Assembly: GCA_963920665.1 (NCBI GenBank) | Contig: OY987268.1 | Coordinates: forward strand, 21,144,501-21,208,500 | Direction: 5' to 3' | DNA: 64,000 nt | Origin: Straminergon stramineum | Lineage: Eukaryota; Streptophyta; Bryopsida; Hypnales; Calliergonaceae | The notes under the pieces: generated by a model | Databases searched by the model: none | The model's input: the letters and a program-made list of their open reading frames with translations, nothing else | What the model was told of the DNA's origin: nothing | Program-made: the position numbers and the translations under genes | Shown: piece after piece, positions 18,589 to 58,120 of the stretch | Position numbering within the stretch: the first letter of the stretch is position 1 | Layout: each line of letters begins with the position of its first letter

Positions 18589-19389
18589 TTAGTTTGAACT
18601 ACCCTCATTGTTTGATAAACAATAATCTAACTCTAAAGTACAGTCATCAACAAACTGCAAAGCATGAGGATCTACCGAACAGGCCCTAGAAGTGGATTTA
18701 GGGTCTTAGGAGACAAAATCCCTGAAAACCGCCTCAACGTATATTGGTAAGTGAAATGGTTTAGGGGGGCTTGGAAAGAATCTTGGATTGGCAAAAAAAG
18801 GGACAAGTGTAAATGAACTCAGTTCATGTGCCTTCCTACAGAAACCAACATACAAGATGTTAGACTAGGAAGGGATAACTTCAATTATTGCAAAAAAATA
18901 AAAGGACATTAAAATGAAACTTACTTACTGAATCGTGATGTCTTCACAACACACTACCATAGGACCTCCTTGTCATCCAAGTCAACATGGGCAATTTGGG
19001 GACGTGGTACTGGTAGGTGAACAACAACAGCACAACGCATTACAAGAGCAATGATGGCATCAAAGATTGTTTTATCCCCTTCGAAGGCCAAAATATGACG
19101 ATGAGTGGCCCAACAAGCCTAAATAGTGGATCCTACAAACAAGACCCTTGAATGTTAGAAGTAGATTTCAGAACAGACATTTCATGACAAAGTTCCAATA
19201 ATATGAATTGCAATAAGAAGCCATAAATACATGTGGCTATTGTGCGGTCCACGATGACGTCCCCTGGTTTAGTTAGGGCCTCCATAAGCATCTACATGAA
19301 TTGTCGACCCTTTTCCTCAAGACTATGCCATAGTAAGTTGCCATTCGTGGCGAGGTCCTCTTCGAAACAGAAGTTCCAAAGGATGTCAT
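18589..19389 (-). pseudogene. spliced gene relic resembling a beta-class DNA (N4/N6) methyltransferase C-terminus
   Basis: Three exon-like blocks are visible on the minus strand. Exon a (19,389-19,231) reads EDLATNGNLLWHSLEEKGRQ and LMEALTKPGDVIVDRTIAT. Exon b (19,132-18,929) reads ACWATHRHILAFEGDKTIFD and ends at a TTCA|GTAAGTAAG donor. Exon c (18,835-18,589) reads PFHLPIYVEAVFRDFVS and ALQFVDDCTLELDYCLSN. In beta-class amino-methyltransferases the SAM-binding motif I (PGD-hydrophobic-hydrophobic-D, usually DPFxGxGT) precedes an A-C/L-x-x-x-x-R-x-I-hydrophobic-x-E-x-D segment. Exons a and b follow that order, with the DPF residues altered. Stops: TAG in exon a, two TAG in exon b, TAA in exon c. 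The upstream part is cut off exactly where LTR copy A begins. The family assignment rests on motif resemblance only. Confidence 0.5.
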
Positions 19390-20648
19390 TGTGAGCCCCT
19401 AATTCATCACCAGAGGTTCACTCTTTCTTTTTTCGTATTGTGTCATTTTAAATACACTTTTATATACAAAAAGACCAAAAAAGAGTGTAAAACCAAAATA
19501 AAAATGTCACATTCTAATATAGTATTTGGTCTAGTTTTGGAATATTATAGCTAGAATGGCCCGACCACAAGTTGTAAATAGGTTAGAACACAACTAATCG
19601 TGGCAAATTGGTCAATTATGAGTGATGGGCGTATCAAGCTCAAAACCCCACATGGAAAGGGCATCTCTAGGCTAGAATTGGTTGAGGGAACCTTGGTAAG
19701 GCATAGGAATCGGTTCCCAAAGATAGGTTCTAGTTTCCCCATTTCATCGACGAAATAACGGAACCCCAATTATTGGCATTGTAGATGTTTAAGATACCAA
19801 GACAGGACCATGGAGGAATCTCAAGTCCTAAGAGGGTGGTTTGGGGTCAAACCTATGTCCGGGAACCAACGGCAAAGTTGGTTCATCAAGATTCCCCCCG
19901 GTGTAAAAGATTCCCCGATGACCAATAATTAAACGAGGGGGTGGATTTTGTCCCCCCTAGGCCGATGTGTAGAGTAAAAATATGAGCCTACACATGTGTT
20001 GTGGGATCCCATGGGAGGTTCCATGAAAAGTTTCAAAATTTTCTGATAGTCAAAAGATGTCTTTCTGGACGGTCAATTTCCCAAATCTGCAATAGGAAAT
20101 TCCTAGAAATTCCTGAGGTGGCGATAAATTCCCACTAAAAATTAGTAGAGCTTCTTTTATGTTAATAAGATGCCCCGACAAGTTTCAAGACATTCCAATA
20201 GTTAGAAGTACCCAAACCTGCCAAATTCCCTGACAATTAATGAAATTTAAAGTCCACGGAAGGTTTGACTAATGGAGCGGGAGCATGCAGAAGCGAAATG
20301 GGGCCCAAGATAAGTCTTTTCTCACACCCCTGTACCTATTTAGGAGCTTAGGCTAGTTACTTTTGCTAGAAAAGTCAACCCCCCAAAAGTTGAGATTTTT
20401 CCTAAGTTTGGCATTTAATTGGTGTTCGGTTTCGTTGCAATTTTGAAGATATAAAAAGAGGAGGGTTTTTTGTAGGATTAAAAATGTCCTTCTAAAGCCA
20501 ATGGCGCAATTTGTTTGCGATTCGGAGTTAATCTCCCAAAGTTAGCTTAGTGGGCCAACATAGGATAAAAACCTTGAGTTTTGGATGAAAATCGAAGAAG
20601 ATAAGGTTAACTTAGATGAATGAGGAGATGTGGGTGCCTAGAAAAGAG

Positions 20649-20656
20649 TATAAAAG
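20649..20656 (+). promoter_or_regulatory. TATA box of LTR copy A
   Basis: TATAAAAG followed by 'ggcaccccttctcttctc', conserved in copies B, C and D and slightly altered in H and F. It lies 1,259 bp from the LTR start, so U3 would be about 1.29 kb and R-U5 about 2.75 kb. The polarity of the TATA box sets the orientation used for the family. Confidence 0.65.
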
Positions 20657-21639
20657 GGCACCCCTTCTCTTCTCTCACCACCCCCTTTTTGTGTAATTGG
20701 GTCCATTTAATCCAAGTTGTATTGAAAATTGTGACATTTTTAGCCACAAGCCTTGCAACGATGTTTTTTGGGCACTTTTGGCCGTTGTTGTTATTATGAG
20801 CTCGCGAGGTCTTTGTGGGTCCCTTGCATTTTGAGTGCGCATAGTACTAACTCTTCTAAGCTTGAGCTTGGAGGCTTTGCTAACTTATTATGTTACTAGA
20901 AGTTGTGTGTGCTTACCTTTGAGAGACCCTTTTGGCCACCTTCTTTGTCTTGTCATTGCATTAACCCTAGAGCAACCCCCCATATGACTAGCAATGTCGC
21001 TTTGGGGGGCCTTTAGTTCAAGTCTTTATTGATACTAACTCTGTATAGCTAATCTTCGTAATGTCAAGGGACAATTCCTTTTGTTATTCCTAAGTTTGAC
21101 GTGGTATTCCTTGGTGAGAGACACGAGAATGTGAGGATAGTGGGTCCCGCCCATTCAATGAAGCTTTGAACCCCTTAAGGATAAAAAGTCTTAGTGGTGT
21201 GTTAAAAGAGGGAACAACGGCAAAGCTTTGAATCCCGTTGGGGTAAAATGTCTGAGCAATGTGTTAAGAGAAAGAACGACGAAGAAGCTTTGAACCTTCT
21301 TGGGGTAAAAAGTCTTAACAATGTGTTAAAAGAGGGAATTATGGCAAAGCTTTAAACCCCTTTGGGATAAAAAGTCTTAGCAGTGCATTAGAACCACCTC
21401 ATGGAAGAACTGTGAGACCACGTGGCCCTTTTCACTAGAAGGTTTAGTTCCCAAAACATGTTGGAAACAAACCAAGGTTTAGGTCCCTAAAAGTAGGAAT
21501 TAGAGGGTAGAAAGAGCATGAGAAAAGAATGGGCCTTCGTCCCCCTGCGGGCCTGAAAAACACCACCTCCTAGCATAGTCATGACCACCCAAACTCCCTA
21601 TAGAAAGTAGCACCAAAATTTGCCATAGGAAAGGTTGCA

Positions 21640-23438: not shown

Positions 23439-24965
23439 GTCATATGGGGGGTTGCTCTAGGGTTAATGCAATGACAAGACAAAGAAGGTGGCCAAAAGGG
23501 TCTCTCAAAGGTAAGCACACACAACTTCTAGTAACATAATAAGTTAGCAAAGCCTCCAAGCTCAAGCTTAGAAGAGTTAGTACTATGCGCACTCAAAATG
23601 CAAGGGACCCACAAAGACCTCGCGAGCTCATAATAACAACAACGGCCAAAAGTGCCCAAAAAACATCGTTGCAAGGCTTGTGGCTAAAAATGTCACAATT
23701 TTCAATACAACTTGGATTAAATGGACCCAATTACACAAAAAGGGGGTGGTGAGAGAAGAGAAGGGGTGCCCTTTTATACTCTTTTCTAGGCACCCACATC
23801 TCCTCATTCATCTAAGTTAACCTTATCTTCTTCGATTTTCATCCAAAACTCAAGGTTTTTATCCTATGTTGGCCCACTAAGCTAACTTTGGGAGATTAAC
23901 TCCGAATCGCAAACAAATTGCGCCATTGGCTTTAGAAGGACATTTTTAATCCTACAAAAAACCCTCCTCTTTTTATATCTTCAAAATTGCAACGAAACCG
24001 AACACCAATTAAATGCCAAACTTAGGAAAAATCTCAACTTTTGGGGGGTTGACTTTTCTAGCAAAAGTAACTAGCCTAAGCTCCTAAATAGGTACAGGGG
24101 TGTGAGAAAAGACTTATCTTGGGCCCCATTTCGCTTCTGCATGCTCCCGCTCCATTAGTCAAACCTTCCGTGGACTTTAAATTTCATTAATTGTCAGGGA
24201 ATTTGGCAGGTTTGGGTACTTCTAACTATTGGAATGTCTTGAAACTTGTCGGGGCATCTTATTAACATAAAAGAAGCTCTACTAATTTTTAGTGGGAATT
24301 TATCGCCACCTCAGGAATTTCTAGGAATTTCCTATTGCAGATTTGGGAAATTGACCGTCCAGAAAGACATCTTTTGACTATCAGAAAATTTTGAAACTTT
24401 TCATGGAACCTCCCATGGGATCCCACAACACATGTGTAGGCTCATATTTTTACTCTACACATCGGCCTAGGGGGGACAAAATCCACCCCCTCGTTTAATT
24501 ATTGGTCATCGGGGAATCTTTTACACCGGGGGGAATCTTGGTGAACCAACTGTCTTGGTATCTTAAACATCTACAATGCCAATAATTGGGGTTCCGTTAT
24601 TTCGTCGATGAAATGGGGAAACTAGAACCTATCTTTGGGAACCGATTCCTATGCCTTACCAAGGTTCCCTCAACCAATTCTAGCCTAGAGATGCCCTTTC
24701 CATGTGGGGTTTTGAGCTTGATACGCCCATCACTCATAATTGACCAATTTGCCACGATTAGTTGTGTTCTAACCTATTTACAACTTGTGGTCGGGCCATT
24801 CTAGCTATAATATTCCAAAACTAGACCAAATACTATATTAGAATGTGACATTCTTATTTTGGTTTTACACTCTTTTTTGGTCTTTTTGTATATAAAAGTG
24901 TATTTAAAATGACACAATACGAAAAAAGAAAGAGTGAGCCTCTGGTGACGAATTAGGGGCTCAGA
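23439..24965 (-). mobile_element. LTR-like element copy D, 5' part only, inverted to copy A
   Basis: The sequence is nearly identical to the reverse complement of 19,390-20,989 and carries the same 72-codon chance frame. It lacks about 83 bp that are present in copy A near 19,785-19,870. It starts within the element at the 'gtcatatgg' block and ends 'gaattaggggctca', with the final bases altered. Its 3' two thirds are absent. Confidence 0.85.
23771..23778 (-). promoter_or_regulatory. TATA box of LTR copy D
   Basis: TATAAAAG on the minus strand, equivalent to 20,649-20,656 in copy A. It faces the copy A promoter about 3.1 kb away. Confidence 0.6.
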
Positions 24966-25442
24966 AATGCCAGACATGATTTTAACCGAATGTCACCTTT
25001 TTTCGGCCATAAATTCCTCTATGGTTCAGTCTTGGTATAATCAACTCTTACAAGCCAACACTAGGATTTCGCTATTTCGTCAATGAAATAGGAAAATTGG
25101 AACCTATCGCAAGGAACTGACCTAAATACCTCACTAGGGTTCCCTCAACCAATTTTAGCCTAGAAATTTCTCTCACATGAGGAATTTGAGTCAATTCTAC
25201 AAGTAACAGATGATCTTCTAATGTACCACCATTAATCGGATTCTAACCTATATACAAGTGGTGGTTTGGGGTATTCTAGCTATAATGCTCTATTTTTAGA
25301 CCAAATACTTTATTGATATGTAACATACCTATTTTGGTTCTACACTCTTTGGGGGGGGGGTTGTATATAAAACTACACTCAAAATTGCAAAACACAAAAA
25401 AATGAAAACAGTGAGTCCTTGGTGACAAATTGGAGGCTTACA
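24966..25442 (-). mobile_element. LTR-like element copy E, diverged 5' fragment
   Basis: It is homologous to the outer 480 bp of copies D and F ('acatgattttaacc...', 'tatttcgtcaatgaaat...') and ends 'ggtgacaaattggaggcttaca', the reverse of the family's 5' end. It is much more diverged from A than D is, so it is an older insertion. A run of nine G lies near 25,352. Confidence 0.75.
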
Positions 25443-31335: not shown

Positions 31336-31980
31336 GTTGAGGCTGAAAATAACATTTTAGAAACCTATATCATGGGTAAATGGAGTTCGGTGCACTCCTA
31401 TCATCCTAGATTTAGAGTCTTTATCAAAATACAATTTTGAAGCACAAAAAAGTGGAATTTGGGGGGCATTTTCAAGGAGCACTAATAGATACTTAATTAT
31501 TGAGTGTGAGGTCATTTTGTGGGCAATTAGAATGGGCCTAAGATTGTGAGTCAGTCCTTGTTCTGCTACCTAGAACTTCATCTCCTTCAATTGGGCAACA
31601 CTTAAAGAAATGCAAAAAAAAGAACAAACAATGTTGATTGACCTTTTTATTCATTTCATTTGTCCTTTGACTAATGATTGTATGGATGGAAGGGAACTAC
31701 TACTTGGAGTTGTTTTGGTAGTTTGAGATAACAATCAGAAGCCAAATCTAACCAATTCACAACGACCCAACGTGCATCAGAAAGATTGTTTTAAAAAAGA
31801 AATCTAAGGCCAACGGGAAAATCATTTTGGGATGGAGAGAGTATCATGCATATAGTTCCCACAAATAGAAATTGGAATTCTTTTTCACTATGATGCCACC
31901 TTCCAACTTGTATAGTTGGCACAATGTAAACCGAGATATTCCTTTACCCTCGTTTTTCGAGGAAAGAGGAGTACCAATGG

Positions 31981-31988
31981 TATAAAAG
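31981..31988 (+). promoter_or_regulatory. candidate TATA box at the left edge of the MIR529 block
   Basis: TATAAAAG within 'ccaatggtataaaagggtg'. It lies about 2.46 kb upstream of the first hairpin. It could start a long primary transcript, but it could equally be chance or belong to the adjacent repeat DNA. Confidence 0.25.
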
Positions 31989-33921
31989 GGTGTGTCAAAT
32001 GAAGTTATCACTTTGGGCCAATGGTACTGATTTTCCCTCGATTAACTTCTTGACCCACCTAGATTCTCGCTCTACCAACATTGACTTGCTGCATACCGTA
32101 TTGTTTTCCACCAATGGTGTTCCAAGATGAAGAATGTGGCGTATTTGCCTGGGACATACTCCCAGCTGCCACTTTATTTCCCCAGCGGTACTTGAGGGAA
32201 GGGACTGTATAAGGTATAGCATTTAGCTGGCCGATGAGCGGCAGGTGCCTGCCAGTGGTGGAGATGCCGTCACTGAACTCTTGCTGGCCCGGAATCTTAT
32301 CAGTAGACTGATTACTGGAAAGATTTTAGAGGGGCGTGAGAAGCCGGGATTGGGCGATACAGGGTGTGGCGGGGAGCGAAAGTACAGTTCGTCAGTAATG
32401 AAGATGGGTGGCCGGGACTCCAGGAGGGTTAGCAGTAAGCTTAATTATGATAAGGAATGTCAAATGCACACTACTGATGAACTGGGTTAGTTGAAGGGAA
32501 TGTTTGGAAGGGGCGGAATAATTATGGGAATATCATAGTAATAATAACTGAATAGGGCATGCCTGACTGGAAGATTGTGTTGCTGATTATTACTATTATT
32601 AGTCTGATTATGTGGACTGAAATTCGGAGATTTCGTTCAGAGAATGTGTGGGACTGTGGGAGAATTTGAAGTTTTGAACAGGCTCTGACATAGTAAAGTA
32701 ACGAAGGATTGGTGATCATTGATTCCAGGAATGTTTGGAACGGTAGAATTGTTTTTTTACCGAAAATGGAATTTACAGCAGCTGTAACAGTGCCTCCCGT
32801 CTTTCCAGCGTCGGGGTAAAATTAGCAGCAAGTAGCGGGCTGCCGTCTGAAGGTGCAGTGTATAGGGTTGCCCTCGCAGCCCAAGACGACGGTGACGACG
32901 GTGACCGGCGATTGCCCGCAGTGGAAAAGGATGTGTGGGCGGGAATGGGGGAGTGGAACCGGAGGCAGCCCGTCGTGTAGTTCCCCTTACAGTAGTTTCT
33001 TTCTGGGGCTGGTTGCATTTCCTTCCGTGTACTATGAAAGCAGAAGCGGAATCGTCTTTCTTCCCCGTTCTCGCCTGCTCTTGCCTGCGCTTGCCCGCTT
33101 GCTTGCTTCCCTCCCTTTTGTGCTCTCTCGTCTGTCCTGCTCTGACACCACGCACCCTCGCCTTAGTACCACAGCACTACTGACCCGTGACGCCAGCCAG
33201 CCAGCAGCCGCAAGCCTCTTCCCTACAGCTTGCCTGCTTGCGTTGCGCATGCCTGCCTGCCTGCCGGGTGCCTTGTGCCTGCACTCCTGTACTCCTGTAG
33301 CCTTGTTTGCTTCAGTTGTCTGCTTTGTTTCTTGGCGGTCGACTGGCGCATCCACCATCCCACCGCTCGCTCCATGACTGGTACTCGTCGGTATCGGGGG
33401 GCGGGACGGGGAGAAGGAGATCTGAAGCTGATCTCCACCATGTGAGGGTGCGCTTGCTGGTCAATGTGGCTCTGAGGCTCGCCGCGGATACAATTACATG
33501 CATCGGATGCCGGCAGGCCGCCGCTTGGTGGTTTAATTCTTGCGACGTAATGTTTACCGGTAATGCACGGCGATGACTAAAAACTTGGAATCGAGAATAG
33601 CTTCGGAGCCGTCTCGGTAACAAGTCGTGCCGCCGCTCCTTCCTTGGATGATTTTCGGCCCGGTTAAGCAATAGCTGTGGCTCGTCTGTAAATTTCGAAC
33701 AAATTGTAGTCTAACCACAAGCTGAGCGTGCCGAGGTTGGCGTGGAATTCCTGGCCTACCACGGCGTTGCACTCTAGAGCTTTGGACGGAGGTTTCACGC
33801 CGCTGCACTCTGAAGTTCCATGAGTTGCAGATTTGTTGTTAAGAGCGTTGTGAAGCTGCCTTCCTTCATCCTTGACTGAGTGTGGTTGCGTGACTGTCCC
33901 TCGTCAACGGAGGCGACCTGC

Positions 33922-34010
33922 TGAACGTTAAGAATATACTTGCGAGTGTAGCGCTGTTGAGAATCCCTTCAACGTAAGAATATGCTTGCGAGCGTAGCGT
34001 TGTTCAAAAA
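33922..34010. repeat. tandem duplication, about 46-bp unit
   Basis: Two units, 'aacgttaagaatatacttgc' + 'gagtgtagcgctgtt' and 'aacgtaagaatatgcttgc' + 'gagcgtagcgttgtt', lie side by side about 430 bp upstream of the first hairpin. Confidence 0.8.
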
Positions 34011-34424
34011 CACTCCAGCCTGGTAACCGCTTTCTTTCTTCTTACGTTTTCCATTTTTTCCTTCGGCTCTCAGAGTATTTTGATATTGGAGAGAAAATCA
34101 TTGGCTCCCATTGCCATCACTGTGAGTGAGTGACGATCGACTCGTAAAGTCGATCTTCCTGACTGACTTTTAAGCCCGCATAGACAAGAACTAGCTGTCT
34201 GTAATTCACATGCATCGAATTTTTTTAACTTGAATGGCATATTAGTGTCCCATGCATGCCTCTTAGGGCCAAGCAACTGTTCTTACTCACCCCTGAGCGT
34301 CGGCGATTGCTTTGTCGCTTACGATCTTCTCTATGGTGCAGTTCCAACTCCCTAGAGAGAGTTGATAGACTTCTCGTGGGATCCAACTGGTTAGTCCGTG
34401 GAGGCGGGCTTCTTGGAATTTTCT

Positions 34425-34521
34425 CACTCACACTGGAATCAGAAGAGAGAGAGCACAGCCCGACAGCCAATGCTAAGTCGGCATGGGCTGTGCCCTCTCT
34501 CTTCTTGTTCCAACGTGAGTG
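34425..34521 (+). ncRNA. MIR529: miR529 precursor hairpin 1
   Basis: The 5' arm at 34,441-34,461 is A followed by the 20-mer GAAGAGAGAGAGCACAGCCC. The 3' arm at 34,485-34,507 begins GGGCTGTGCCCTCTCTCTTC and pairs almost completely with it. Pairing extends outward ('cactcacactggaa' with 'ttccaacgtgagtg') for a stem of about 37 bp closed by a loop of about 23 nt. This is the geometry of a plant pre-miRNA, with the mature strand on the 5' arm. The miR529 family, related to miR156, is known to guide cleavage of SBP-box (SPL) transcription factor mRNAs. The GCACAGCCC ending matches bryophyte members as I remember them. The precursor lies 132 bp (end to start) upstream of a second hairpin, so both probably come from one primary transcript made by RNA polymerase II. 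Confidence 0.93.
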
Positions 34522-34653
34522 TCACGCGCCCGGTCACAACGCTTCAAGCTTATTCAGAAGACAACCGGAAGTCAACAATATCCGACATCAAGGCATAGGA
34601 TTTTCCCCCTCAGTCCGGCACTGTCCGTTTGATTACATCAATCAAACCTTTCT

Positions 34654-34778
34654 ACACTTAAGTCGGGATTCGAAGAGAGAGAGCACAGCCCCCTACTTTT
34701 CTCTCTCTTCTTCAAGTTCTTCCACGGGAACTGATGTCGGGCTGTGCTCCCTCTTTTCCAGTCCCTACTTGGATGTGT
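34654..34778 (+). ncRNA. MIR529: miR529 precursor hairpin 2
   Basis: The 5' arm at 34,671-34,691 is C followed by the same 20-mer GAAGAGAGAGAGCACAGCCC, starting exactly 230 nt after the arm in hairpin 1. The star strand at 34,739-34,759 (GGGCTGTGCTCCCTCTTTTC) pairs with it, with a few mismatches toward the base. The outer stem pairs 'acac..aagt.ggga' with 'tccctacttggatgtgt'. The loop is longer (about 47 nt) than in hairpin 1. It contains a second pyrimidine run, 'ttctctctcttcttc' at 34,699-34,713, that is itself complementary to the GAAGAGAGAGAG part of the mature strand, so an alternative short fold is possible. Role and targets as for hairpin 1. Confidence 0.92.
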
Positions 34779-37700
34779 CGCCATCGCGGATGATGAAATA
34801 TGGCAGTAGTAGAGGTCGGCAACTTTTGCGAGTTATCCAGTTTAGAACTCTTACGATCTTTGAGCGGCCTCTATTTTAGCGAAGTATCTTCACGACGAAA
34901 GACTTGTCGTTTCTACGCCGCCGAATACCCCGAGTTAGACTAAGGAGGCTTGTTCACATGTGACCACGTGCATTTGCTGTAATCTCTGGTGACTAAGCAG
35001 TACAGTTTTGCTGACAAGCGGGCGACATCACCTCGCTCAGTTCATCGGTTCTGTTCGAATCCATCTTGTTGCCAAGAGAACAACCGCCAGGTCATTGACA
35101 TTGCGCATCTCGGAGGACAGTAGCTTATCACAGTTGCGCAATAACTCTATTTTTACGTGACAGTTACACTCGAACCCGAGCTTTATCCTGGTGAAGCTGG
35201 ATGTAAGATGTCGGGGTGTAGACCATGTATTATTGTGGTTCAGCACAAAATAAGGACTAACTAGTTTTTTAGAGAAGGGAGACTTGGCAGTATTTCAATT
35301 GTTGTAGTTAACGTTACTTACATTCACTCGGAGATCTCACCTGGATGGATCCTTTTGCTGTGCTCTGACGTCGGTAGACGAGGTCTTGATCTAGTGGCAT
35401 TTGATTATTAGTAGGATGCTTGACTATTTACTTACAGTCGCATGTGCCGATATTTACGCTACTGCAGAGTTGTGGACGAACTCAAAGTGCACGCGAAGTC
35501 AGTGCTGGCATATTTAATGAAAAGCGATGGCGACACAGACTTCAGAATGCAAAATCTTAGAGCGCATGTTCGCGTCAATTTTAGAATTATGCACCATTGC
35601 TGCCTAGTTTTGGAGTGAAACTTTTGAAAGAAGTTATGGATTGTTACATTTTATTTGTTACTCAAGCTCTGGGCTTAAGAAGACATTTGAGTCATTTGTG
35701 GACTTGATATTATGAAACTTCGACCGCTTTATTGTCTCTGCTCGTACGACCGGAGTATACCTACATTCTTTGGGCCCTTGTGACTGTGAAGTGGGTACTG
35801 GTCATGCATAGCAGCAGTAGTGTTCCTCGATATATAGAAATGTGACGCCAGACAGATGTTCCTGTTAGCTTCATACGTTTATGTAATTTAACATTACTGT
35901 ATGACATAGCTTCATTCGGCAACGAAGTGTGTCACGACAAGTGGACGCTAAATGGGGAGTGATGGCGAAATCTACAGGTATGAATCGGGCCCCAGTTAGA
36001 CATCTCCTCGCATATGATCTATAATGCGTTAATTGCTTGAGGATAGCCTGACATGAATGTTCTACTCCATTTTCATAGCTCTCAAGTTATTTCTAAGTTA
36101 AGGTTTGATGCTGATGTTGATTAGATCCCAAGAACTTGGCACAGAATTTGGCATCTGACATCTTAAATTGACTAGTTTGTAACTGTTGTGCAGATCGTGA
36201 TCGAGTATCACGGGGAGAAACGATCTTTCATCTACATTAACACATTGGAAAGTTGAATTGATTTTAACTTTACAGTTACCTAGACGATTCGCGGAACTTG
36301 TGTGCAGTAGTCTCAGCGAGCCGTGGGTACTCACATTGACCTAACATTGTGTTTACATGTTTCGCTTATTTGCTGACGTTTTTGGTGAGTTGAGACTGAT
36401 CTCAGTTTGAATTTACATTACACTTCGTCTTCCTCCCGTACGTGTTTGTTCGTTGAAGTTAGTATCTGATTAAGGAACGAAAAGTGAAAAAGTGACGTGA
36501 CGTAGTTATTCCGTAACCTGTGTTCACTGTTTGGAGGAGCACTACTTCTAGAACTTAGACCTTGAGTGACTTCATCCTTGAGTGTCCAATGGAGAATGTA
36601 CCACACTCAGTTGTGCATGCCTTCATTCTCTACGAGTATAACCCAGGATGAATCACAGACCTTACTGTTCTCAGGTGTAGGTTCCGTGATTTGACAACTG
36701 GCCAACGACGTTTAGTAGCAGTTGAGTGGTTGTATGTTCTTAATCTGATGCCATTTGAAAGGACTCCAGAGCAATCTATGAAGGTGCTACGGCTTTGTAT
36801 GAATCAGACTATCATCTATCGTCTATGGTAGGTTCACTGCACGCTGACGTATCTAGCAGAGGATGCAGGAGAAAGCAGATTTGGTGTCGTGATGCTAAGT
36901 GGAGGAAAACGCGCACAGTAAGAAAGTGCTCTCAACCATCTAGGACTTCGCAAACGCAAGGGTAGGCTTTCTAAATCCGCTACTCGATTGTTCAGTTGGC
37001 TGATAAAAATAACGATATCTCTTCGATGCGCGCAGTGACGTCACAATGCAGATGCATTTAAGGAGCTCGACAATACCGTTAGCTACGAGTATTCAGGCAC
37101 GATATCTGGAAGGAATCCTTCTGAAGAACTTTAGGTGAGTTCTGGGCATCCTTCTGGAGAACTTTTAGTAAGTCTGGACTTGTTTGCACCCGAATTCTCT
37201 ATGATAAGCATATTGATGAGTCTGTGTAGTCATATTTTCAAAGCAGCACATTTATAGGATACATAGCATGCGAGGTCTTATTCAGGGTATCATTGGCAGG
37301 GACGACACGATGGCTCTGTCACGAAGATTATAGGGGTGATTCGGCTATTCAGTGTACATTCTCAGTACTGTCCAGCTGAATCTGAAAGTTTCTGCATTGA
37401 TTGCACATTCTGAGTATTGATCGACTGAATCTAATTTCTGCATACTAAGTAGCGGATAACGCGACTTCTGCGACCTGGAAACTGTGCTTCAGTTGGTTGC
37501 CCTTGTTGTGCGGGGCTTGCTGAATCACTCCAAGAACTCTTTTATCAGGATGATCGCATACCATCGGGTCAGCGTTATAATTATTACGTGAGCCCTTGTA
37601 CTTTACCTTGTTTATTTTGAATATCAACTGCTATTGCTTACCCTGAAGATAAGTTGTCTCTCGGTTCTCTGAACATCCGCTGCGTGAATTCAAATAGTGC

Positions 37701-39498
37701 ATTCCGCTCAACATAGATCTGGATTAATAGGTCTACCAATAATGAGAGATCTCGTCGGTTCTAAATTTTATAATTGTAGCAGCTTTGTCTTGCCTTGATG
37801 ATTCTCATCCAGCGCTTCTGGTAAATCTGGTCTCAAAGATTGCTCAGAGTTTCTTATATAGACTTCCGTGGACGTCGTTCTTGCTGAGGATGTGCGATTT
37901 TTAGAGTATGCTCCTCATTTATTGAGTTCTTCCATTCTGTTCCTCAAACTTTGTTTACTGTACATGTGCTGTACAGTCAGTGATTGGTTCTCGGATTGGT
38001 TCCAGTTATGCATAGTATTTCTTTTATTATATGCATATGATTATAGATACGTACGGATACTCCTGACTGACTGCTGTCAACGCTCAAGGTAACTTGAAAC
38101 CAATAGCAACCCTGGATTCGAGCCTGTGTACTTGGGGACTTTGCGAGTTGGAAGTACTGTGAGCATCGGTTTTATGCGCGCTACTTTATTGGAGGTGTGA
38201 TCAACTCGAGGGCCATTTGAGTTGCTGATACTTTTTGAGTCAGTGTTACAACGTCTTAATGCCAGGCTTTTAAATATGCTTTGCTTGGTTTAGACGGTTC
38301 GAGAGTCTCAGTGTTTTGCGTAGTTCGAGGAAATGGTAAATATAAGCTTTGGCATTCAGATTCTGCCTGAAACTTTTGTTCATGCAGTTGTAGTTTTTTT
38401 TCATGTTGCAGTTCATTTTAAAGTGAAGGCCTTGTCTTCTCAAGTCAAGGTTCCTGCTCGTAGGCATTTACCGTCTACCATACTGGAGGAAGTTGCAACT
38501 TTCTGAAAATCCCGGAGCAGAGATTTGATTCTGATATCATTTTAACAGTATGATTTTGAATTTTCAGTCGTATTAAATCTCGATATTGCAGCAGTGCTAT
38601 CACTGAGTTTCAGTCGCAGTGTCTGACCTTCTCTGAGGTGTCACTTAGTCTTGTTTGGTGCGAGCGGGGGTGCAAGCAGTCGTTCTAAGATCATCCTTTA
38701 TCGGGGTGCTACATGGCCATTTAAACAGAAGTTCACCACCTTCATTGACAAAGCGATCAATGTTATAGACATATAGTAGCAAATGATGTCAGTATGTGAG
38801 TCACTCATGCAATGCACTTCCAATCCCGTCGAGGGTTACGCTGGAGATACTCATATTGGGGTAATACGAACCCTTAGTTTCGATGACGACTTATCGAGTG
38901 TTTTGTCCAGGTGAGAAGGCTTAGAACATACGCTCAACGTTGTGACTGCTTAAGGTATGGACACCTACATTTAGACCAGAAGGAGTCACTTTTTCCTAGA
39001 TATTGACTTGACAAGATGTACACACTTTGAAAATGAAAGTCTGGTTTGGTATTGGTTTATAGTACACCTAAAGACAATATTTTAAAAATTCATAACTTAT
39101 TCATACTCTAACCAAATAATGCATGCTAAAGTACGTTGGAATCTGTTACCAGTAAGGCCTAATAAAAATAATGAAAATAATTTGTGTTTAATAATAGTAA
39201 CTACGCTCAGCTATAATTAGGATCCATTGTAAGTCCGCACACCTTAGTTTCCTTTCTTCATCCAGACTCTCCGTCTGCAATGGTATTGCAGGTGATTTTC
39301 AAACAAAAACTGAAATATACTCCGCAGCTTTGGGATCAGGGATTTCTTGCATTCTCCCTGTTGAGTGGCTACGTGATCTTCTCTACAGTGAAAGCACTCT
39401 CACCTGGACCACACGCGTGCGCGCTGTACCACCCAATAGTCATCATTAACAGAATGGCCGTGGTAACGTAATACCAGAAACGCTCTGACGGTATTCAA
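34779..39498. other. mostly non-repetitive DNA downstream of the MIR529 pair
   Basis: No coding exon is recognised. Open frames are short (up to about 84 codons) and lack motifs. Composition is balanced, with frequent CG. Donor-like 'aggtgagt' strings occur (for example near 37,133), so the primary miRNA transcript may be spliced and extend through here, which is inference. An 'aataaa' lies near 39,160, close to a return to AT-rich sequence, and could mark a 3' end. Weak internal duplications lie at about 37,110-37,175 and 37,345-37,440. Confidence 0.4.
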
Positions 39499-39734
39499 GG
39501 CCGGGGTGGATTGACCCCCTCGCTCGTCCCCAAGTAAAAACCCTGAAATTTTTTATTTTTCACTCATGATAAAATTTGCAAATTTTGAATTCATATTTGC
39601 AATCAGAGGCCCTCAATTAGATAGGGGAGGTAGAGAAGACAAATTAATGATGCACAAAATAGGGGGTCTTTTTTTTTACATGCACCCCTGGAATGACTTG
39701 GGGGGACGAGCGAGGGGGTCAATCCACCCCGGCC
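39499..39734. mobile_element. 236-bp MITE with 8-bp target duplication
   Basis: The termini are nearly perfect inverted repeats of about 38 bp: left GGCCGGGGTGGATTGACCCC then 'ctcgctcgtccccaagt'; the right end is the same in reverse complement except for two extra C. The flanks are an exact 8-bp duplication, GTATTCAA at 39,491-39,498 and 39,735-39,742. An 8-bp duplication fits the hAT superfamily, although these termini are not the usual CAGGG type. The interior is AT-rich with no coding capacity. Near-identity of the arms implies recent insertion. Confidence 0.9.
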
Positions 39735-41266
39735 GTATTCAAGGTGTGCAGCTTGAGTTTGAAAGTTTCTGAGGCTGCAACTTGCCGCGCAGTAGAGCCA
39801 ATCGAGCGTGAGATATGGAATGACTTCTGAGTCTTCAAGTTCACTGCTAATGTTTGTTCATTTATTTACATTTTTTGGTTCCCAGTGATCGATTGAAGCC
39901 TCCGCTCGAGATTCGCACGCTGGAGCTGTATTCCCTAGATGAGAAGCTTTGCTTGGTGAGGCCTTCGTCTTTGAAAGTTTTACCAGTCTCGAATGCAACC
40001 AATTTTCAGCTAAGCGCTATTCAAAACCTACGCCAGCTCCATACTGGGGTGTCTGCAAGTGGATAATTCGGCCGATTCTCTCCTCCTGATCACGTAAGTT
40101 AGCCCTGGAAGGACACCGCCTAGGTGATAGTGACTCAGTCAAAAATGATTCAATTTTTGAACTGAGTCACTGCAGATGCTTTCCGTGTTTCAGAGAAAAT
40201 CATCCATCGGGAATCTTTATTGTCCTCAATTGAATTGCGTTCTCCCAGGGGTAAACTTGTGAGTTGTGACATATTTTAGCTTAAGAGCCAATGAGCAGGG
40301 TTCTGTGCCACCTCTCAATCTAGGCCAACTCTACCGTAGGCTACTGTAGTGCTGTACTCATCACACTCAACTGGCGGTGATTTGGTATTTTAGACTCACT
40401 TCATGCTACGACCTGAAGTGGGCTAGCCGCTGTGGTACCACTGCTGATTAGGCTAGATATTCTGTAAAGCCAGACGTCATGGTGAGCTACTACAGTCCAC
40501 AGCCGGCCTCCTACTCTACGGAGAAAAATGCTGAGAATGAAATATGGTCATTACTATTCAAGGAATTACAGATTTCCGGTACAGGCTACTGCTGCTAAAT
40601 ATGCGCACCTGTGGCTGTCAGTTATTTCACTTCAGGACCTGTGATTCTGTGAAATTTATTGAGAGAAGAATTTTGAAGTGAAGAATGTCCCCGACTGCAT
40701 TGCAGCGGCTCTGGATACTGACACGCCTACTTGTGGGGACCGGGCCTTTTTTTTCGGTTTTTGAGAAAATGCCAGACTGGCTATAGTTAGTCTTCATCCT
40801 GTTGCCCACATGGCGAGGGACACAATTCCAACAATGAATCATACTGGGGAAAGTCCTAGTGTGACTGGCATAATCTGGCACACAGGGTTTTCAATTGGTG
40901 ACAAATTCTGGCACTATCAAGAAAATTTTCTAAGCAAAAAAGGCAAAACTTTTTGGGATAGCTAGCATCATATGGCACTTACAATTTTTATCAAAAGTGA
41001 AAAAAAGGCGAATTCGCAAGGTACTGGTGGTGTATTTAGGCACCACCTCACATTATAAAAAAATAACAATTTACTTGCAAATATTTGCATACGATAGCAC
41101 ATGGTAGAAGGAAAAAAATCAATTCATTCATAAATATTGTTTATGGACACAAGGGACCAAGCTAGGGTCCATCCATGGAAGAAAAAGTCCTTCATCATGC
41201 ATGGCTGCTGGACTTCAATAATTCCCATTGACCTTAAAACTCAATGGATAAGCCCATGTCTATAGT
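39735..41266. other. end of the balanced-composition block and 3' remnant of the hAT gene
   Basis: Balanced composition continues to about 40,880, then the sequence becomes AT-rich. No gene is recognised. The last 26 bp before LTR copy C (41,241-41,266, minus strand) continue the reading frame of the hAT relic at 49,925 for about six codons to a TGA. The hAT 3' untranslated or terminal part probably occupies up to a few hundred bases here. Confidence 0.45.
40129..40171. repeat. 43-bp hairpin with TGACTCA / TGAGTCA arms
   Basis: 'agtgactcagtcaaaaat' pairs with 'atttttgaactgagtcact' with one bulged base, around a very short loop. The arms contain the GCN4/AP-1-type core TGACTCA. It is too short to be a miRNA precursor. 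Confidence 0.7.
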
Positions 41267-49924: not shown

Positions 49925-52900
49925 ATGGTCAACTCCTTTTGCCCATTGATTATAGGCATCTTCATAAGGAAAATTCTCTGAGGTAAAGACCTTTTGAAAA
50001 CACATTCTCACAATGCATTCTAGGTGGGTGTCTAAGGCATTCCTTAATTTATTCTTTAAAAATACCAAAGAGTTGAAACACCTCTCATCCTCCACAGATC
50101 CCAAAACTTGGATAATAGCAATTTTAGCCAATTTATAGAACTCCAGGAATGCTTTCACTCTTAGAATGGTGCATGAATTCAAGTAATGCCACAAACCGGT
50201 GAGAGGATTGACGTCAAATGGAGGTTCCATGTCTTTTTTGGAATTGTTGAGCATGGCTAATTTAAATAAACTCTACTTAGTCTCCAATATATAACGGTCA
50301 AGAACAAGTGGGATCAACAACTTTACCTTATCAACTTCAATTAACTTGGGCTCACAGTAGTAGGACATCAAAATTGAAAGGTGTTTAGGAAAACATTACT
50401 CAACTTCATTCTGAAGCCAATACTGTGGATAAACAACACCTAAGGCATCTATAACTACATGAGAGGGAAACTGTGATTCTAACTCCCCCAATAGTTGCCG
50501 AGCTGCCCCAGTAAACAACCAAAAGTATATCATCAACAATATATGTACAAAAATTAATTAATGGTGTATGTAGTTACTCAACAATTCTACAAAGTAAACT
50601 CTAAACAACAATAGCCTTCAAATGAAGTATCCAAATTAGCCTTGACATATATGACCCATATGGCATCACTAATTGTGATATGAGAACCTTCAATTCAATT
50701 AGTAACTATTTTGTATAAGTGACTGAACTTGATTCATGCATTGAAATCCAATAAGCAATTAGTAACTCAAATTACATTAAAACATAAACATTAAAACATT
50801 TAGTAAGTTAGTGAAATAAAATGAAGAATAAAATTCAAATAAGTAGCTGAACTAGATTTAAACGATAAATATACTCAAATGGTGTAAGGAAGTTACTAAG
50901 ATTACAGTAAAGCATGTGTAATCATTAAAACTTTCACAAAAAACAAATAGCTACTTAAATTACATTAAATCCTCAATATCAAAACATGTAGTAAGTTAGT
51001 AAAATACAACATAAAGATTAAATATTAACATTAAAATATGCATTAAGTTATTGGAATTACATTAACACTAAACGCTTGAATCACTAGAAGAAACCAACGT
51101 TGATTTCAAGAGAATTCAATTGACGCAAAATTCTGTTGAAACCAATGCTGGTTTCTTCTAGAGAATTTACTTGAAATTAGTGAATTGAAAACCAATAAGT
51201 AAGGACCAAATGAAACTATTAACTGTAAAATCCACCTTCACATAAACTTCACATACTCCTAAATTATTGACAGCATCCTAAAGAACCTCAAACTTCATAA
51301 AGCAAAAGAAGGCAAAAGTTAAATATTTGATCACCCCGTCTTCACAGTAGAAACAAGCAATGTAAATACTTCTCGGTCCATTGGTGATTCCCCATGAATA
51401 GTCTAGATTTTCTCTCCATTTGCGACAAATACCAACTAGGTTGTCTCATTGTTCAGGTCTGACATCCATTTCAAATGGATTTGACTATGGGAGCACTCAA
51501 GGATACTCTTAAATGCCCTAAACTCATCTCCGCCATATGCAATAAATTTATCAACAAGAAGTATGTAGAGCTATCTTTATGCAATTTTAAGCGCAGCTAC
51601 TAAATGACAAATATAAACATCTCGTATTTGGGCAAAGATTACAAGTAGATCAACCGTTTCCAAAAGAGGCATGAGTGTTGTCATATCTAGAAGGGCATAC
51701 GGATCCAAGAGGAGGCTCAAACATTTCTATACAACCAAGACAAATTTGAGGTTACATGTCTGGGTAACATAATACTAGATATTGATTCAATAGTACTAGC
51801 ATTCTAAATTCGACAAAGATAGCTTCAAGCGGCAAAGACTCAACAGTAAGTAAAGTCACGTAACACAACAACAAAGAGAAGAAAAGAGGTCATAGGAAGA
51901 GGGGTCACACCTTGATAGCAATATTCTTGACTATATCAACCTTCAATCCTTCATCTTTGCAAGGAGAGTCTGATAGTTAGAAAGCAACCTCCTTAATGGC
52001 TCTAAGAGGGACATCCACCTTGTTGAAACTTGTAATAAAGGCCTTCAACCCTTGGTCTTTATGACCTCCACTAGCTTTTGATATTCAAAGAGGCGCTTGG
52101 GGCTCTTGGTGAAATAGAAATGTACTTTTTAAATAATTTGTTCCACGATTTTGAAGATGGGTAAAATAGAGAGTGACTTGGTTGCAAGATTGCATTTGTG
52201 GGCCATGTAGTGGACACCTATGCAAAAAAAGAGCGAATTTTGTTTGGATTTGTATAGTCACTCCACTTCTAACACCTTGGAAGGTGCTAATACTATCAAC
52301 GCCAAAGCAAATGAGCTTCCTTGAGACCTGTTCAAAAGTAAGGTCACCTCCATCCTCCAAGGCCTTGAGGATGAGTAATGTCAAGTTGTCTGCACTAGCT
52401 CCATCGACCAACCGCTGTAAAGAAATGAGGTGTGGGATCCTTTGAAAATTCTCTACAATATAGGAGTGAATACAAATACAGCTGTCGTTGTCCACTGTAG
52501 TGACTTCGTCACAAGTAAGAGAAATGAAGTGGGCACATCTCATTTTTTTTCTTATGGCTTCTTTCACTTAGCAATGCATGTAGTTGGCCATATTCCACCT
52601 AGAATTGTCTGCCCAATGCATTTGGGGTAAATTTGGAATGTTTAGAAATGCATATAAAGCTTGCCTCTCTTCATATTCTTTTATGGGACGTTTGGATGAC
52701 AAAATTTGGAAAATTTTTCATAGTTGCACAATCTTTTTGGAACATGCCATTGATGTAGAAGTATTCACTTGTTGTATAACTGATGTAGGCTGCCTCGTTG
52801 CAAAATGATGCAAGTTTATTTGATGCCAATTAGTACTTGAAATGTAATATTCGTCTGCCTTCACCTTATATTTGGGCATGTTGAAGGCAACTTCTCTCCT

Positions 52901-55961: not shown

Positions 55962-57920
55962 ATGGTGGAGGGAGATATCCGGAAGACTTTGGTCACCGGC
56001 CGGATGGTTTGTCCAACCATTGCGGAAAGGCTGAGAGACAGATTCCAGTTAGAGGATGACCTTAGTGAGATAGGGTGTGTCAGTTTGTTCATGTGGCCGT
56101 GGACCATAAAGAATGACCAGATGATTCAGGAACTGATAGTAGGAGCTTCCAACTAGTATGAGTTGACGGTGAGAGGAAGGCCTCAGACCTAGTCTGATGA
56201 AGTCTGGGCTAAGGTTTACGGATTTCCCAAGAAGGGATCCGGTTTAGCTTCCTGGACAGACAAGTTTACAGTAGGAAAGTTCAAGAACGTTGCCCATTCT
56301 AAGGAAGGGTATGCGATTAGTAACTGCCTAGATGAAAGACATAGGCATGTCCTAGAGTTCTTGATCCCTATCCTATATTCGGAAAAGCCTACCTGGGTTA
56401 TGGTTACAGTAGCAAACACCATTTTTGGTGCATTTGAGGGTAGACCAGTCAGTTGGGGCAAGGTGATTGGATCCGTAGTCGCCAAGCTTGCTGCCAATGT
56501 GGGAAAGGGAAAGACCAGCCCCATAGGGCCGTATCTTTTCCATCTCTACCACCACGCAAAGCTTCTCAGCGATGCGGAAATGGTGGAGTACAACACCGGA
56601 GCGACCATCCTCCAATACGGCCTGACAGAAGAAGTGACGGCGGAGCAGTTGCCGGTGGAAGAGGAGGAGGATCCGGAAGAGGATGAGCAACCCTTGGAGC
56701 GGAGGCACCGAAAGTCGACGGATCCGACATCAAGGGGAAAGCTTCCGGCTCAACAGAGGATCTCCGAAGAGGAGGAAGGAAGTATATCCGGGTTCTTCAA
56801 AACCGGATTCAACTAGGTACTCCAAGCGCAAGAGTACCACGAGAGCGTGACGGATCTGCTCAGGAGGATAGGTCGGGAGTTGAAGACGAAACCGGAAGAC
56901 ATCCTCAACACGTTGAAGAAACTTCCCAATCCGGAAGTCCTCGAGCGGAAGGACAGGCAAATCGTAGCTTTGGAGAAGGAGAAAGCGGATCTTCAGGCAA
57001 GACTCAGCTGGGCGCAAGGGGAGATGGCTACAGTGAAGCAAAGGGAGAAGGAAGCCCTCCAGTTGCTGAAGAACTTATCCGGCTTAGTAGACAAGCCGGC
57101 CGATATGGTGATGAAGGCGGCTCTAACCTAGAGCCGGTTGACTTAGGAAGGGCACCTCACCGAATCCAAGGTCATCCGGATACTCGTGGACTTCTCCTCA
57201 TGGATGGAGCTCACACTCAAGGAGATGAGGCAACTGCTTAGACGGATCGATCCCGACCGGGTAATGGACTTCTCCAACTTTCCGGAGATCCATTTCGACA
57301 CGGAGACACCCGTCAAGCTCACCGCCTCCATGCCGCTACCTTCAAAACCGGAAGCCCCGTGGGAGACTCTCCAGTACTCAACGGAACCCTTCTCCAAGCA
57401 GTTGGAGAAGACAATCCAGGGGAGCGTGAAGTCAGCACCTGAGCCAAGCACGTAGCTGGATAAAAGATGGGAGTTGGTGCCTCCAGAGATTACGGTGTCT
57501 CCACCCGTCCCAGTGTTCAACCTTTCGGAAAAGGAGCCACTGCCGACACCGCACACCCAAGCCTGTGGCCAACTGATAGAACGGATTGGGAGGTTGTTGA
57601 ATCTGGCCCGGTCTCATCCGGAGGAGTTCGAGCATATGGTGGAGGAGCAGCAACCAAGGAAGGAGATCGAGCCTATCGTGTTGGATGAGACATCTCGAAG
57701 CGAGGAGAATGAGAGGGAGATAACTCAGATTGAGAAATCTGAGGAGGAAGAGTACCGGACCGAATTGGAGGACGAGGACGAGGAAGAAGCAGAATACTCT
57801 CCTCCGGAATTCCGGAAAATATAGACCCGAGTGGCGTTACGGATGACCCCCATCAAGGTGACCCTGAAGGCAAGTCCAAGGTCATCAATGCGAGCACCAA
57901 CGAGTCAAGGCGGGAGCAGC
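55962..57920 (+). pseudogene. long retroelement-like frame interrupted only by TAG codons
   Basis: One reading frame runs without shift from ATG 55,962 to the gap at 57,921 (653 codons). It is broken only at 56,154, 56,190, 56,814, 57,129, 57,144, 57,453 and 57,822, all TAG. The N-terminal part reads CPTIAERLRDRFQLEDDLSE, VSLFMWPWTIKNDQMIQELI and AKVYGFPKKGSGLASWTDKF, then VSWGKVIGSVVAKLAANVGK and SPIGPYLFHLYHHAKLLSDA. A central Glu/Lys-rich section (about 56,840-57,120) looks coiled-coil: KDRQIVALEKEKADLQARL. The C-terminal part is acidic (TELEDEDEEEAEYSPPEF). I infer a gag-like structural protein of an LTR retroelement from position and architecture. No zinc knuckle, protease or reverse transcriptase is present before the gap. 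Codons are GC-richer than the surroundings, implying a younger insertion. Confidence 0.65.
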
Positions 57921-58120
57921 NNNNNNNNNNNNNNNNNNNNNNNNNNNNNNNNNNNNNNNNNNNNNNNNNNNNNNNNNNNNNNNNNNNNNNNNNNNNNNNN
58001 NNNNNNNNNNNNNNNNNNNNNNNNNNNNNNNNNNNNNNNNNNNNNNNNNNNNNNNNNNNNNNNNNNNNNNNNNNNNNNNNNNNNNNNNNNNNNNNNNNNN
58101 NNNNNNNNNNNNNNNNNNNN
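57921..58120. other. assembly gap, 200 N
   Basis: Exactly 200 N. Sequence character changes from GC-balanced coding relic on the left to AT-rich DNA on the right, so the rest of the retroelement is missing or the join may be wrong. Confidence 0.99.

What the first reader, a model, noticed from the sequence alone, without database searches (positions are those of the whole stretch)
34425..34778. Tandem MIR529 cluster in the middle of a transposon-dense region
Two hairpins 230 nt apart (mature strand to mature strand) carry the same 20-mer GAAGAGAGAGAGCACAGCCC on the 5' arm, preceded by A in one and C in the other. Each has a well-paired 3' arm. The sequence shows the arms and the pairing directly. 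That this core is miR529 and targets SBP-box mRNAs is established for the family. That both come from one primary transcript is inference.
Basis: partly seen in the sequence, partly recalled or inferred. Interest (0 to 1): 0.85.

Follow-up and report, generated by a model that had tools for sequence, protein, structure and literature searches.

The report
Paired miR529 microRNA genes in moss
This stretch of what is probably a moss genome holds two neighbouring microRNA hairpins of the long-known miR529 family; a sister pair lies elsewhere in the same genome, and both look like an ordinary, conserved regulator of developmental switch genes.

Summary
Confirmed, and ordinary in kind. Two + strand hairpins (34425-34521, 34655-34775) carry A- and C-GAAGAGAGAGAGCACAGCCC on their 5' arms, 230 nt apart, and fold far better than shuffles (z -8.5, -5.6). 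With a 2-nt overhang the star strands should start at 34487 and 34741, not 34485 and 34739. Rfam's best family is MIR529, below its curated cut-off.

The 326-Mb genome has a TAS6/TAS3-like locus, so it is probably a moss. A paralogous pair lies on another contig: same order (A-form, then C-form), same strand, 224 nt apart, diverged loops and star strands. All five genome matches to the 20-mer with at most one mismatch lie in these four hairpins. A protein from a separate public contig encodes the same pair of cores, 225 nt apart.

Both clusters lie about 2 kb inside a roughly 9-kb GC/CpG-richer island with a T-rich + strand, suggesting one primary transcript. In the window that island holds no in-window repeats; the repeats are in the flanks. 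Two of nine SBP genes carry a site with 2-3 mismatches to the A-form, all beyond position 16.

Tandem MIR529 pairs are already reported in Physcomitrella: a new member of a known kind. Expression and cleavage were not testable.

The parts
34425..34521 (+). MIR529 precursor hairpin H1 (A-form)
   Evidence: fold z -8.5; RF00908 best hit 48.2 bits, below gathering score 75; paralogue at C8:19871806-19871903
34441..34461 (+). predicted mature miR529, AGAAGAGAGAGAGCACAGCCC
   Evidence: identical to a miRNA sequenced in a fern (289 reads, PMC5426797 Table 1); 20 of 21 paired in the hairpin
34487..34507 (+). predicted miR529* of H1 (2-nt 3' overhang)
   Evidence: pairing computed; the fern star strand starts with the same GCTGTGC
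34522..34654 (+). 133-nt spacer between the hairpins
   Evidence: no DNA match to the spacer of the paralogous pair at E<=1e-3
34655..34775 (+). MIR529 precursor hairpin H2 (C-form)
   Evidence: fold z -5.6; RF00908 32.5 bits on +, 38.3 on -, both below 75, and on + only just ahead of MIR156 at 31.4; paralogue in L002:1725-1837
34671..34691 (+). predicted mature miR529, CGAAGAGAGAGAGCACAGCCC
   Evidence: 19 of 21 paired; 21/21 identical to the C8 paralogue
34741..34761 (+). predicted miR529* of H2 (2-nt 3' overhang)
31844..41265 (+). island without in-window repeats, GC- and CpG-richer, + strand mostly T-rich from about 32.0 to 40.5 kb; putative primary-transcript unit (boundaries approximate, transcription inferred)

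Best explanation
A tandem pair of MIR529 genes in what is probably a moss. A primary transcript from the + strand, starting about 2 kb upstream near 32.0-32.5 kb, carries both foldbacks (inferred). A Dicer-like 1 enzyme excises a 21-nt duplex from each (inferred from the family). The 5' arms (A-form and C-form) enter an Argonaute (inferred) and guide cleavage of a subset of SBP-box (SPL) mRNAs, whose sites overlap the miR156 site and encode RALSLLSSQSW (sites shown, cleavage not shown). The pair arose by an old tandem duplication, followed by duplication of the whole pair onto a second contig (supported by comparison).
For: Exact mature cores and strong separate folds. MIR529 is the best-scoring Rfam family for both hairpins and for both paralogues. 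The paralogous pair C8:19871806-19872126 has the same order, strand and spacing, 224 vs 230 nt. Mature 20/21 and 21/21 identical, against star 18/21 and 15/21, with loops diverged: constraint lies on the + 5' arms. H1 and H2 star strands differ at 5 of 21 while the 5' arms differ at 1 of 21. P0111, from a separate source (2 contigs, longest 1,683 bp), encodes two KRESTA cores 225 nt apart and aligns in order to both window hairpins. Both clusters sit about 2 kb inside about 9-kb islands; the lowest 6.4-kb AT skew of the 64-kb window and of the 40 kb around C8 begins just inside the islands (-0.132 at 32,501 and -0.134 at 19,870,600). Sites in 2 of 9 SBP genes with penalty 2 and 3; the best of 20 shuffled miRNAs per locus was never under 7. 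Fern small RNAs show the same mature strand and star register (PMC5426797).
Against: No expression data could be consulted. Rfam scores (48.2, 32.5) lie below the curated 75, H2 on + is only 1.1 bits ahead of MIR156, and H2 scores higher on the minus strand. Compensatory change is weak with four sequences: 4 pairs changed on both sides, reached by 32 of 500 shuffles. H2p keeps only 18 of 21 mature bases paired. No TATAWAW or AATAAA motif was found on the + strand in 32,001-36,500; the minus strand has one and three. The minus strand of 401- and 901-nt segments folds slightly better than the + strand.
Confidence: 0.93

Rival explanations
1. Two independently transcribed MIR529 genes that happen to be neighbours, each with its own promoter in the spacer or upstream.
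For: The spacer is 133 nt and unconserved between the two pairs at the DNA level; no transcript data.
Against: Same strand, order and spacing (230, 224, 225 nt) in three pairs; one T-rich-strand island spans both; 133 nt leaves little room for a promoter. In Physcomitrella 25% of miRNAs are polycistronic (PMC9291395 citing Axtell 2007, passage seen).
Confidence: 0.12
2. The functional precursors lie on the minus strand, giving miR529-like products from the other arms.
For: Rfam scores are close on both strands, 48.2/47.3 for H1 and 32.5/38.3 for H2; minus-strand H1 folds better, -66.5 kcal/mol, as do minus-strand 401- and 901-nt segments; TATAWAW at 35836 on the minus strand, none on +.
Against: Minus-strand 5' arms differ from the miR529 core by 1 and 2 bases and from each other, while the + arms are identical over 20 bases; R1 scores all four hairpins higher on + (R1 was built from the + strand, so this is partly circular); T-rich + strand.
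Confidence: 0.04
3. An inverted-repeat or transposon-derived hairpin pair that feeds siRNAs and resembles miR529 by chance.
For: The flanks are repeat-rich; the core is partly GA-repeat.
Against: One paralogous pair and no further copy was found in the genome; no in-window repeat within 2.5 kb; conserved mature arms with diverged loops.
Confidence: 0.02
4. Part of a protein-coding gene: the 216-codon stop-to-stop frame 34229-34879 covers both hairpins.
For: Long open frame; P0111 matches it at E 1.5e-17.
Against: The two cores are in different frames in the window and on C8 (230 and 224 nt apart), but in one frame in P0111 (225 nt); P0111's first half matches the window in another frame than its second half; no Pfam family. 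The similarity is that of the hairpin DNA.
Confidence: 0.02

Closest known systems
Tandem MIR529 pairs of Physcomitrium (Physcomitrella) patens (PMC4409300)
   Same: Moss, miR529 family, neighbouring pairs attributed to tandem duplication; 3 pairs among 7 genes reported there (passage seen). The miRBase entry closest to the A-form is given as ppt-miR529d (PMC5426797 table).
   Different: This genome (326 Mb) shows 4 hairpins in 2 pairs. The Physcomitrella precursors were not held, so orthology was not tested. That paper gives under 100 nt between members; here 133 nt lie between hairpin ends, which may only reflect where precursors are cut off.
Marchantia polymorpha miR529c-MpSPL2 module (PMC10721683, PMC9291395)
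   Same: miR529; SPL target (passages seen).
   Different: Liverwort; no tandem MIR529 pair is mentioned in the passages seen.
MIR156 family (RF00073)
   Same: Related sequence, overlapping SPL site; Rfam match 32.9 bits for H1 and 31.4 for H2.
   Different: Different core; this genome has probable MIR156 loci of its own at C2:10001690 and C1:11597863, exact for the recalled miR156.
Rfam MIR529 consensus (RF00908; rice and maize members recalled)
   Same: Same core; the C8 H1p core carries GAGUACAGCC as in the Rfam consensus.
   Different: Scores below Rfam's cut-off; H1 and H2 loops of 23 and 47 nt are shorter than in the model.

Membership tests
MIR529 (RF00908) | mature core GAAGAGAGAGAG(C/U)ACAGCC on the 5' arm | tested here: met
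MIR529 (RF00908) | Rfam covariance model score at or above gathering (75 bits) | tested here: not met
   48.2 and 32.5 bits on +, still the best-scoring family at E 3.1e-8 and 1.3e-3 for the whole window; the C8 paralogues score 43.7 and 42.7, so all four fall below; I read this as distance from the curated seed, not as non-membership
MIR529 (RF00908) | complementary site in SBP-box genes overlapping the miR156 site | tested here: met
   C3:5556333 and C10:6942448, 2 of 9 SBP genes
Plant MIRNA locus (criteria of Axtell and Meyers, recalled) | foldback under 300 nt with at most 5 mismatched positions in the duplex and little asymmetry | tested here: met
   H1 1 and H2 2 unpaired positions of the mature strand; C8 pair 1 and 3
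Plant MIRNA locus (criteria of Axtell and Meyers, recalled) | precise 20-24-nt miRNA and star reads in small-RNA libraries | not testable with these tools
   no small-RNA data held
Polycistronic plant MIRNA | one primary transcript spanning both hairpins | tested here: inconclusive
   conserved order, strand and spacing, shared compositional island; no transcript data
miR529-triggered TAS6 (moss) | miR529 site 5' of a miR156 site upstream of TAS3 | tested here: inconclusive
   C2:7913534 miR156 site, penalty 1, lies 1,000 nt 5' of a miR390 site (penalty 2.5), but the best miR529 site there scores 9, no better than shuffled miRNAs (5% level 8)

The most novel reading that the evidence does not exclude
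The ordered A-form/C-form pair is itself a conserved unit: one transcript delivers two miR529 species with different 5' bases, sorted into different Argonautes or with different target strength (at the two SBP sites the C-form loses the pair at position 1). This would be why both paralogous pairs, and by the codons of P0111 probably a third (Q before the first core, S before the second), keep the order and the 5' base while loops, spacers and star strands have diverged.
Probability: 0.12. Interest if true: 0.5.

Novelty: new member of a known kind. Interest (0 to 1): 0.28.

Why it matters
It extends the tandem MIR529 arrangement, given for Physcomitrella as 'data not shown' in the passage seen (PMC4409300), to another genome with an apparently small set: 4 hairpins in 2 pairs and 2 SBP genes with sites. 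The role of miR529 in moss sporophytes is stated to be unknown (PMC10721683, passage seen); a set this small could be removed with two deletions in a moss that can be transformed.

Tried and rejected
Rejected: protein-coding reading of 34229-34879 (frames not conserved); minus-strand precursors (points in their favour are in the rival list); cross-hairpin or loop-arm refolding in H2 (probabilities near 0 for the pairs probed). Looked for and not found: similarity between the C6 and C8 islands outside the hairpins (4 DNA and 5 translated matches in the island, all overlapping hairpins); Pfam families in 4 of the 22 island ORFs of 80 codons or more; Pfam or NCBIfam families in flank ORFs (6 tested, one weak match below its cut-off; 4, none), so no transposon domain was shown; a supported miR529 site in the TAS6-like locus. 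The compensatory-change test was weak. Weak Rfam matches elsewhere were set aside: MIR169, mir-552 and mir-722 at 14.1-14.8 kb, in an internally repeated array, and MIR1886 at 51,082-51,161. The organism was not identified: a paper search for moss, genome assembly and 326 Mb gave 0 papers.

Not examined: of 32 genome-wide matches with up to 3 mismatches, 30 came with loci and were folded; C10:6942448 was read later and C11:8083605 not at all. The SBP-site scan read one strand of each 3.0-3.2-kb locus, which is antisense for the C1 gene; for that gene, and beyond 1.5 kb from the SBP exons of the others, only the genome-wide patterns apply. Model R1 was run on 14 held sources, not the whole genome.

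Full report
Observation. The sequence shows the 20-mer GAAGAGAGAGAGCACAGCCC at 34442-34461 and 34672-34691 on the + strand, preceded by A and C. With up to 3 mismatches the window has exactly four matches, these two and their opposite arms at 34485-34504 and 34739-34758; 100 shuffled windows give none. The exact 20-mer gave no match in the prokaryote or viral collections. Both hairpins fold much better than dinucleotide shuffles (z -8.5 and -5.6) and stay separate hairpins in segments of 401, 601 and 901 nt.

Register. With 21-nt strands and 2-nt 3' overhangs the star strands are 34487-34507 and 34741-34761. In the fern Pleopeltis minima the sequenced A-form is identical to the 34441-34461 strand (289 reads) and a 3' strand beginning GCTGTGC has 163 reads (PMC5426797, passages seen), which is the register predicted here.

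Family. RF00908 MIR529 is the best-scoring Rfam match for both hairpins (48.2 bits on + and 47.3 on - for H1; 32.5 on + and 38.3 on - for H2, where MIR156 scores 31.4 on +), but below the gathering score of 75, and nothing was reported at that threshold. The two paralogues found later behave the same way (43.7 and 42.7 bits on +). I read this as distance from the curated seed. Rfam scores alone do not fix the strand; conservation does. The + 5' arms of H1 and H2 agree at 20 of 21 bases, the star strands at 16 of 21.

Genome. The window is G000:C6:21144501-21208500 of a 326-Mb genome in 59 contigs. Searching it with the cluster gave the cluster itself and one other place, C8:19871806-19872066. 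Reading that locus shows a second tandem pair: H1p with AGAAGAGAGAGAGUACAGCCC and H2p with CGAAGAGAGAGAGCACAGCCC, 224 nt apart, same strand, folding with z -9.1 and -5.0. H1 is closest to H1p and H2 to H2p among the comparisons made: 29 and 26 of 37 opposed stem positions unchanged, against 24 for H1-H2 and 23 for H1p-H2p. This supports a tandem duplication older than the duplication of the pair. In H1p the C-to-U change at position 14 is matched by G-to-A on the other arm. Formal covariation on four sequences is weak (4 pairs changed on both sides; 32 of 500 shuffles reach that).

Family size. A genome-wide scan with up to 3 mismatches gave 32 matches, against 5 for the reversed pattern. Eight are the two arms of the four hairpins; they include all five matches with at most one mismatch. 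Of the other 24, 22 were folded and none had more than 17 of 20 bases paired in one arm, against 18-20 for the four hairpins (a crude test). The one at C2:10001695 is a probable MIR156 locus. So the miR529 set found here is two tandem pairs.

A third pair. A protein search with the frame that spans the hairpins found one protein, P0111, from a separate source (2 contigs, longest 1,683 bp). It contains KRESTA, the translation of the core, twice, 225 nt apart, and GLCSL, the translation of the 3' arms, twice, 246 nt apart (window 254, C8 240). Against translated DNA its two halves align in order to the two window hairpins, in different frames (54 aligned positions at 63% and 61 at 72%, 63.2 and 85.9 bits); against C8 there is one main alignment at 40% (70.5 bits), strong over the first hairpin and poor over the second. 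It is thus probably nearer to the window's pair than to the C8 pair. If its cores also begin with G, the residues before KRESTA (Q, then S) imply A-form first and C-form second. Whether that contig is DNA or RNA is not known. The frame itself is not a conserved protein.

Surroundings. 36% of the window is covered by repeats with another copy inside it; 31,844-41,265 has none. No transposon domain was found in the flank ORFs tested, so the transposon label rests on the repeats. This island has GC 0.449 against 0.292 in the left flank, CpG observed/expected 0.79 against 0.19, and a T-rich + strand (AT skew -0.094); the C8 cluster lies in a like island of about 9 kb (0.429, 0.76, -0.103). The lowest 6.4-kb AT skew of each region begins just inside the island. 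In both, the hairpins lie about 2 kb from the left edge, and the only matches between the islands overlap the hairpins. I infer a + strand primary transcript with the hairpins near its 5' end. Transcription was not observed, and no TATAWAW or AATAAA motif was found on the + strand of 32,001-36,500.

Targets. The SBP domain family gave 15 matches, which I group into nine genes. Two of them, at C3:5554846 and C10:6940797, have downstream open frames encoding RALSLLSSQSW with an exact GTGCTCTCTCTCTTCTGTCA. Against the A-form these sites have mismatches only at positions 17 and 21, and at 17, 19 and 21 (penalties 2 and 3); the C-form adds a mismatch at position 1. Among the 15 loci, 3 contain one of these two sites; the best site in the other 12 scores 7 or more, as do the shuffled miRNAs (the C1 gene's sense strand is covered only by the genome-wide patterns). 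Two paralogous R2R3-MYB genes have a like site about 480-515 nt 5' of the first MYB repeat. One paper states that many MYB genes are miR529 targets in Marchantia (PMC8541648, passage seen).

Moss identity. A miR156 site (penalty 1) lies 1,000 nt 5' of a miR390 site (penalty 2.5), with a second miR390-like site 232 nt further whose penalty of 8 is only at the 5% level of shuffled miRNAs. This is the geometry of the TAS6-TAS3 loci reported from mosses in the passages seen (PMC3835848, PMC5907777). Nine SBP genes is the number listed for Ceratodon purpureus, against 13 for P. patens and 17 for Sphagnum fallax (PMC10796333); this does not identify the species. A miR529 site in that TAS6-like locus was not supported.

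Comparison with print. PMC4409300 reports that three MIR529 pairs of seven genes in moss lie next to each other and fit tandem duplication (passage seen). PMC9291395 cites Axtell 2007 for 25% polycistronic miRNAs in P. patens (passage seen; the original was not held). miR529 is stated to act with miR156 on TAS6 (PMC3565333, passage seen), and its role in moss sporophytes to be unknown (PMC10721683, passage seen). The finding is thus a new member of a known kind. What I did not meet in the passages seen is the conserved order of A-form and C-form across paralogous pairs; no search was made specifically for that statement.

Noticed in passing
L048 (C3:21037115, - strand) and L050 (C2:11934001, + strand): Two paralogous R2R3-MYB genes carry a miR156/529-complementary site, reading LSLLS in one frame, about 480-515 nt 5' of the first MYB repeat; for miR529 the penalty is 2 (C3, A-form) and 4 (C2, best with the H1p form).
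   Followed up: partly
window 19389-20988 and 23439-24966: Near-perfect inverted repeat (1,113 nt at 100% and 417 nt at 99%) with about 2.45 kb between arms; diverged copies of the same repeat at 41.3-43.3, 46.7-48.7 and 61.5-62.9 kb. Could be a recent mobile-element insertion or an assembly artefact.
   Followed up: no
window 12.5-15.4 kb: Array of about 210-nt repeats, partly inverted; gives weak Rfam miRNA matches that are probably chance.
   Followed up: no
window 56193-57821, gap 57921-58120: Open frames, the first with 110 relatives in public contigs and no Pfam family, possibly of a mobile element, followed by a run of 200 N.
   Followed up: no
L049 and L073 (C2:7913534-7914786): TAS6/TAS3-like locus: miR156 site 1,000 nt 5' of a miR390 site, with a weak second miR390-like site 232 nt further; no supported miR529 site.
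   Followed up: partly
C7:12325517, 12433213, 12524398: Three SBP-domain genes within 200 kb, each with positions 1-74 of the domain in one open stretch, unlike the split matches of the other six SBP genes.
   Followed up: no
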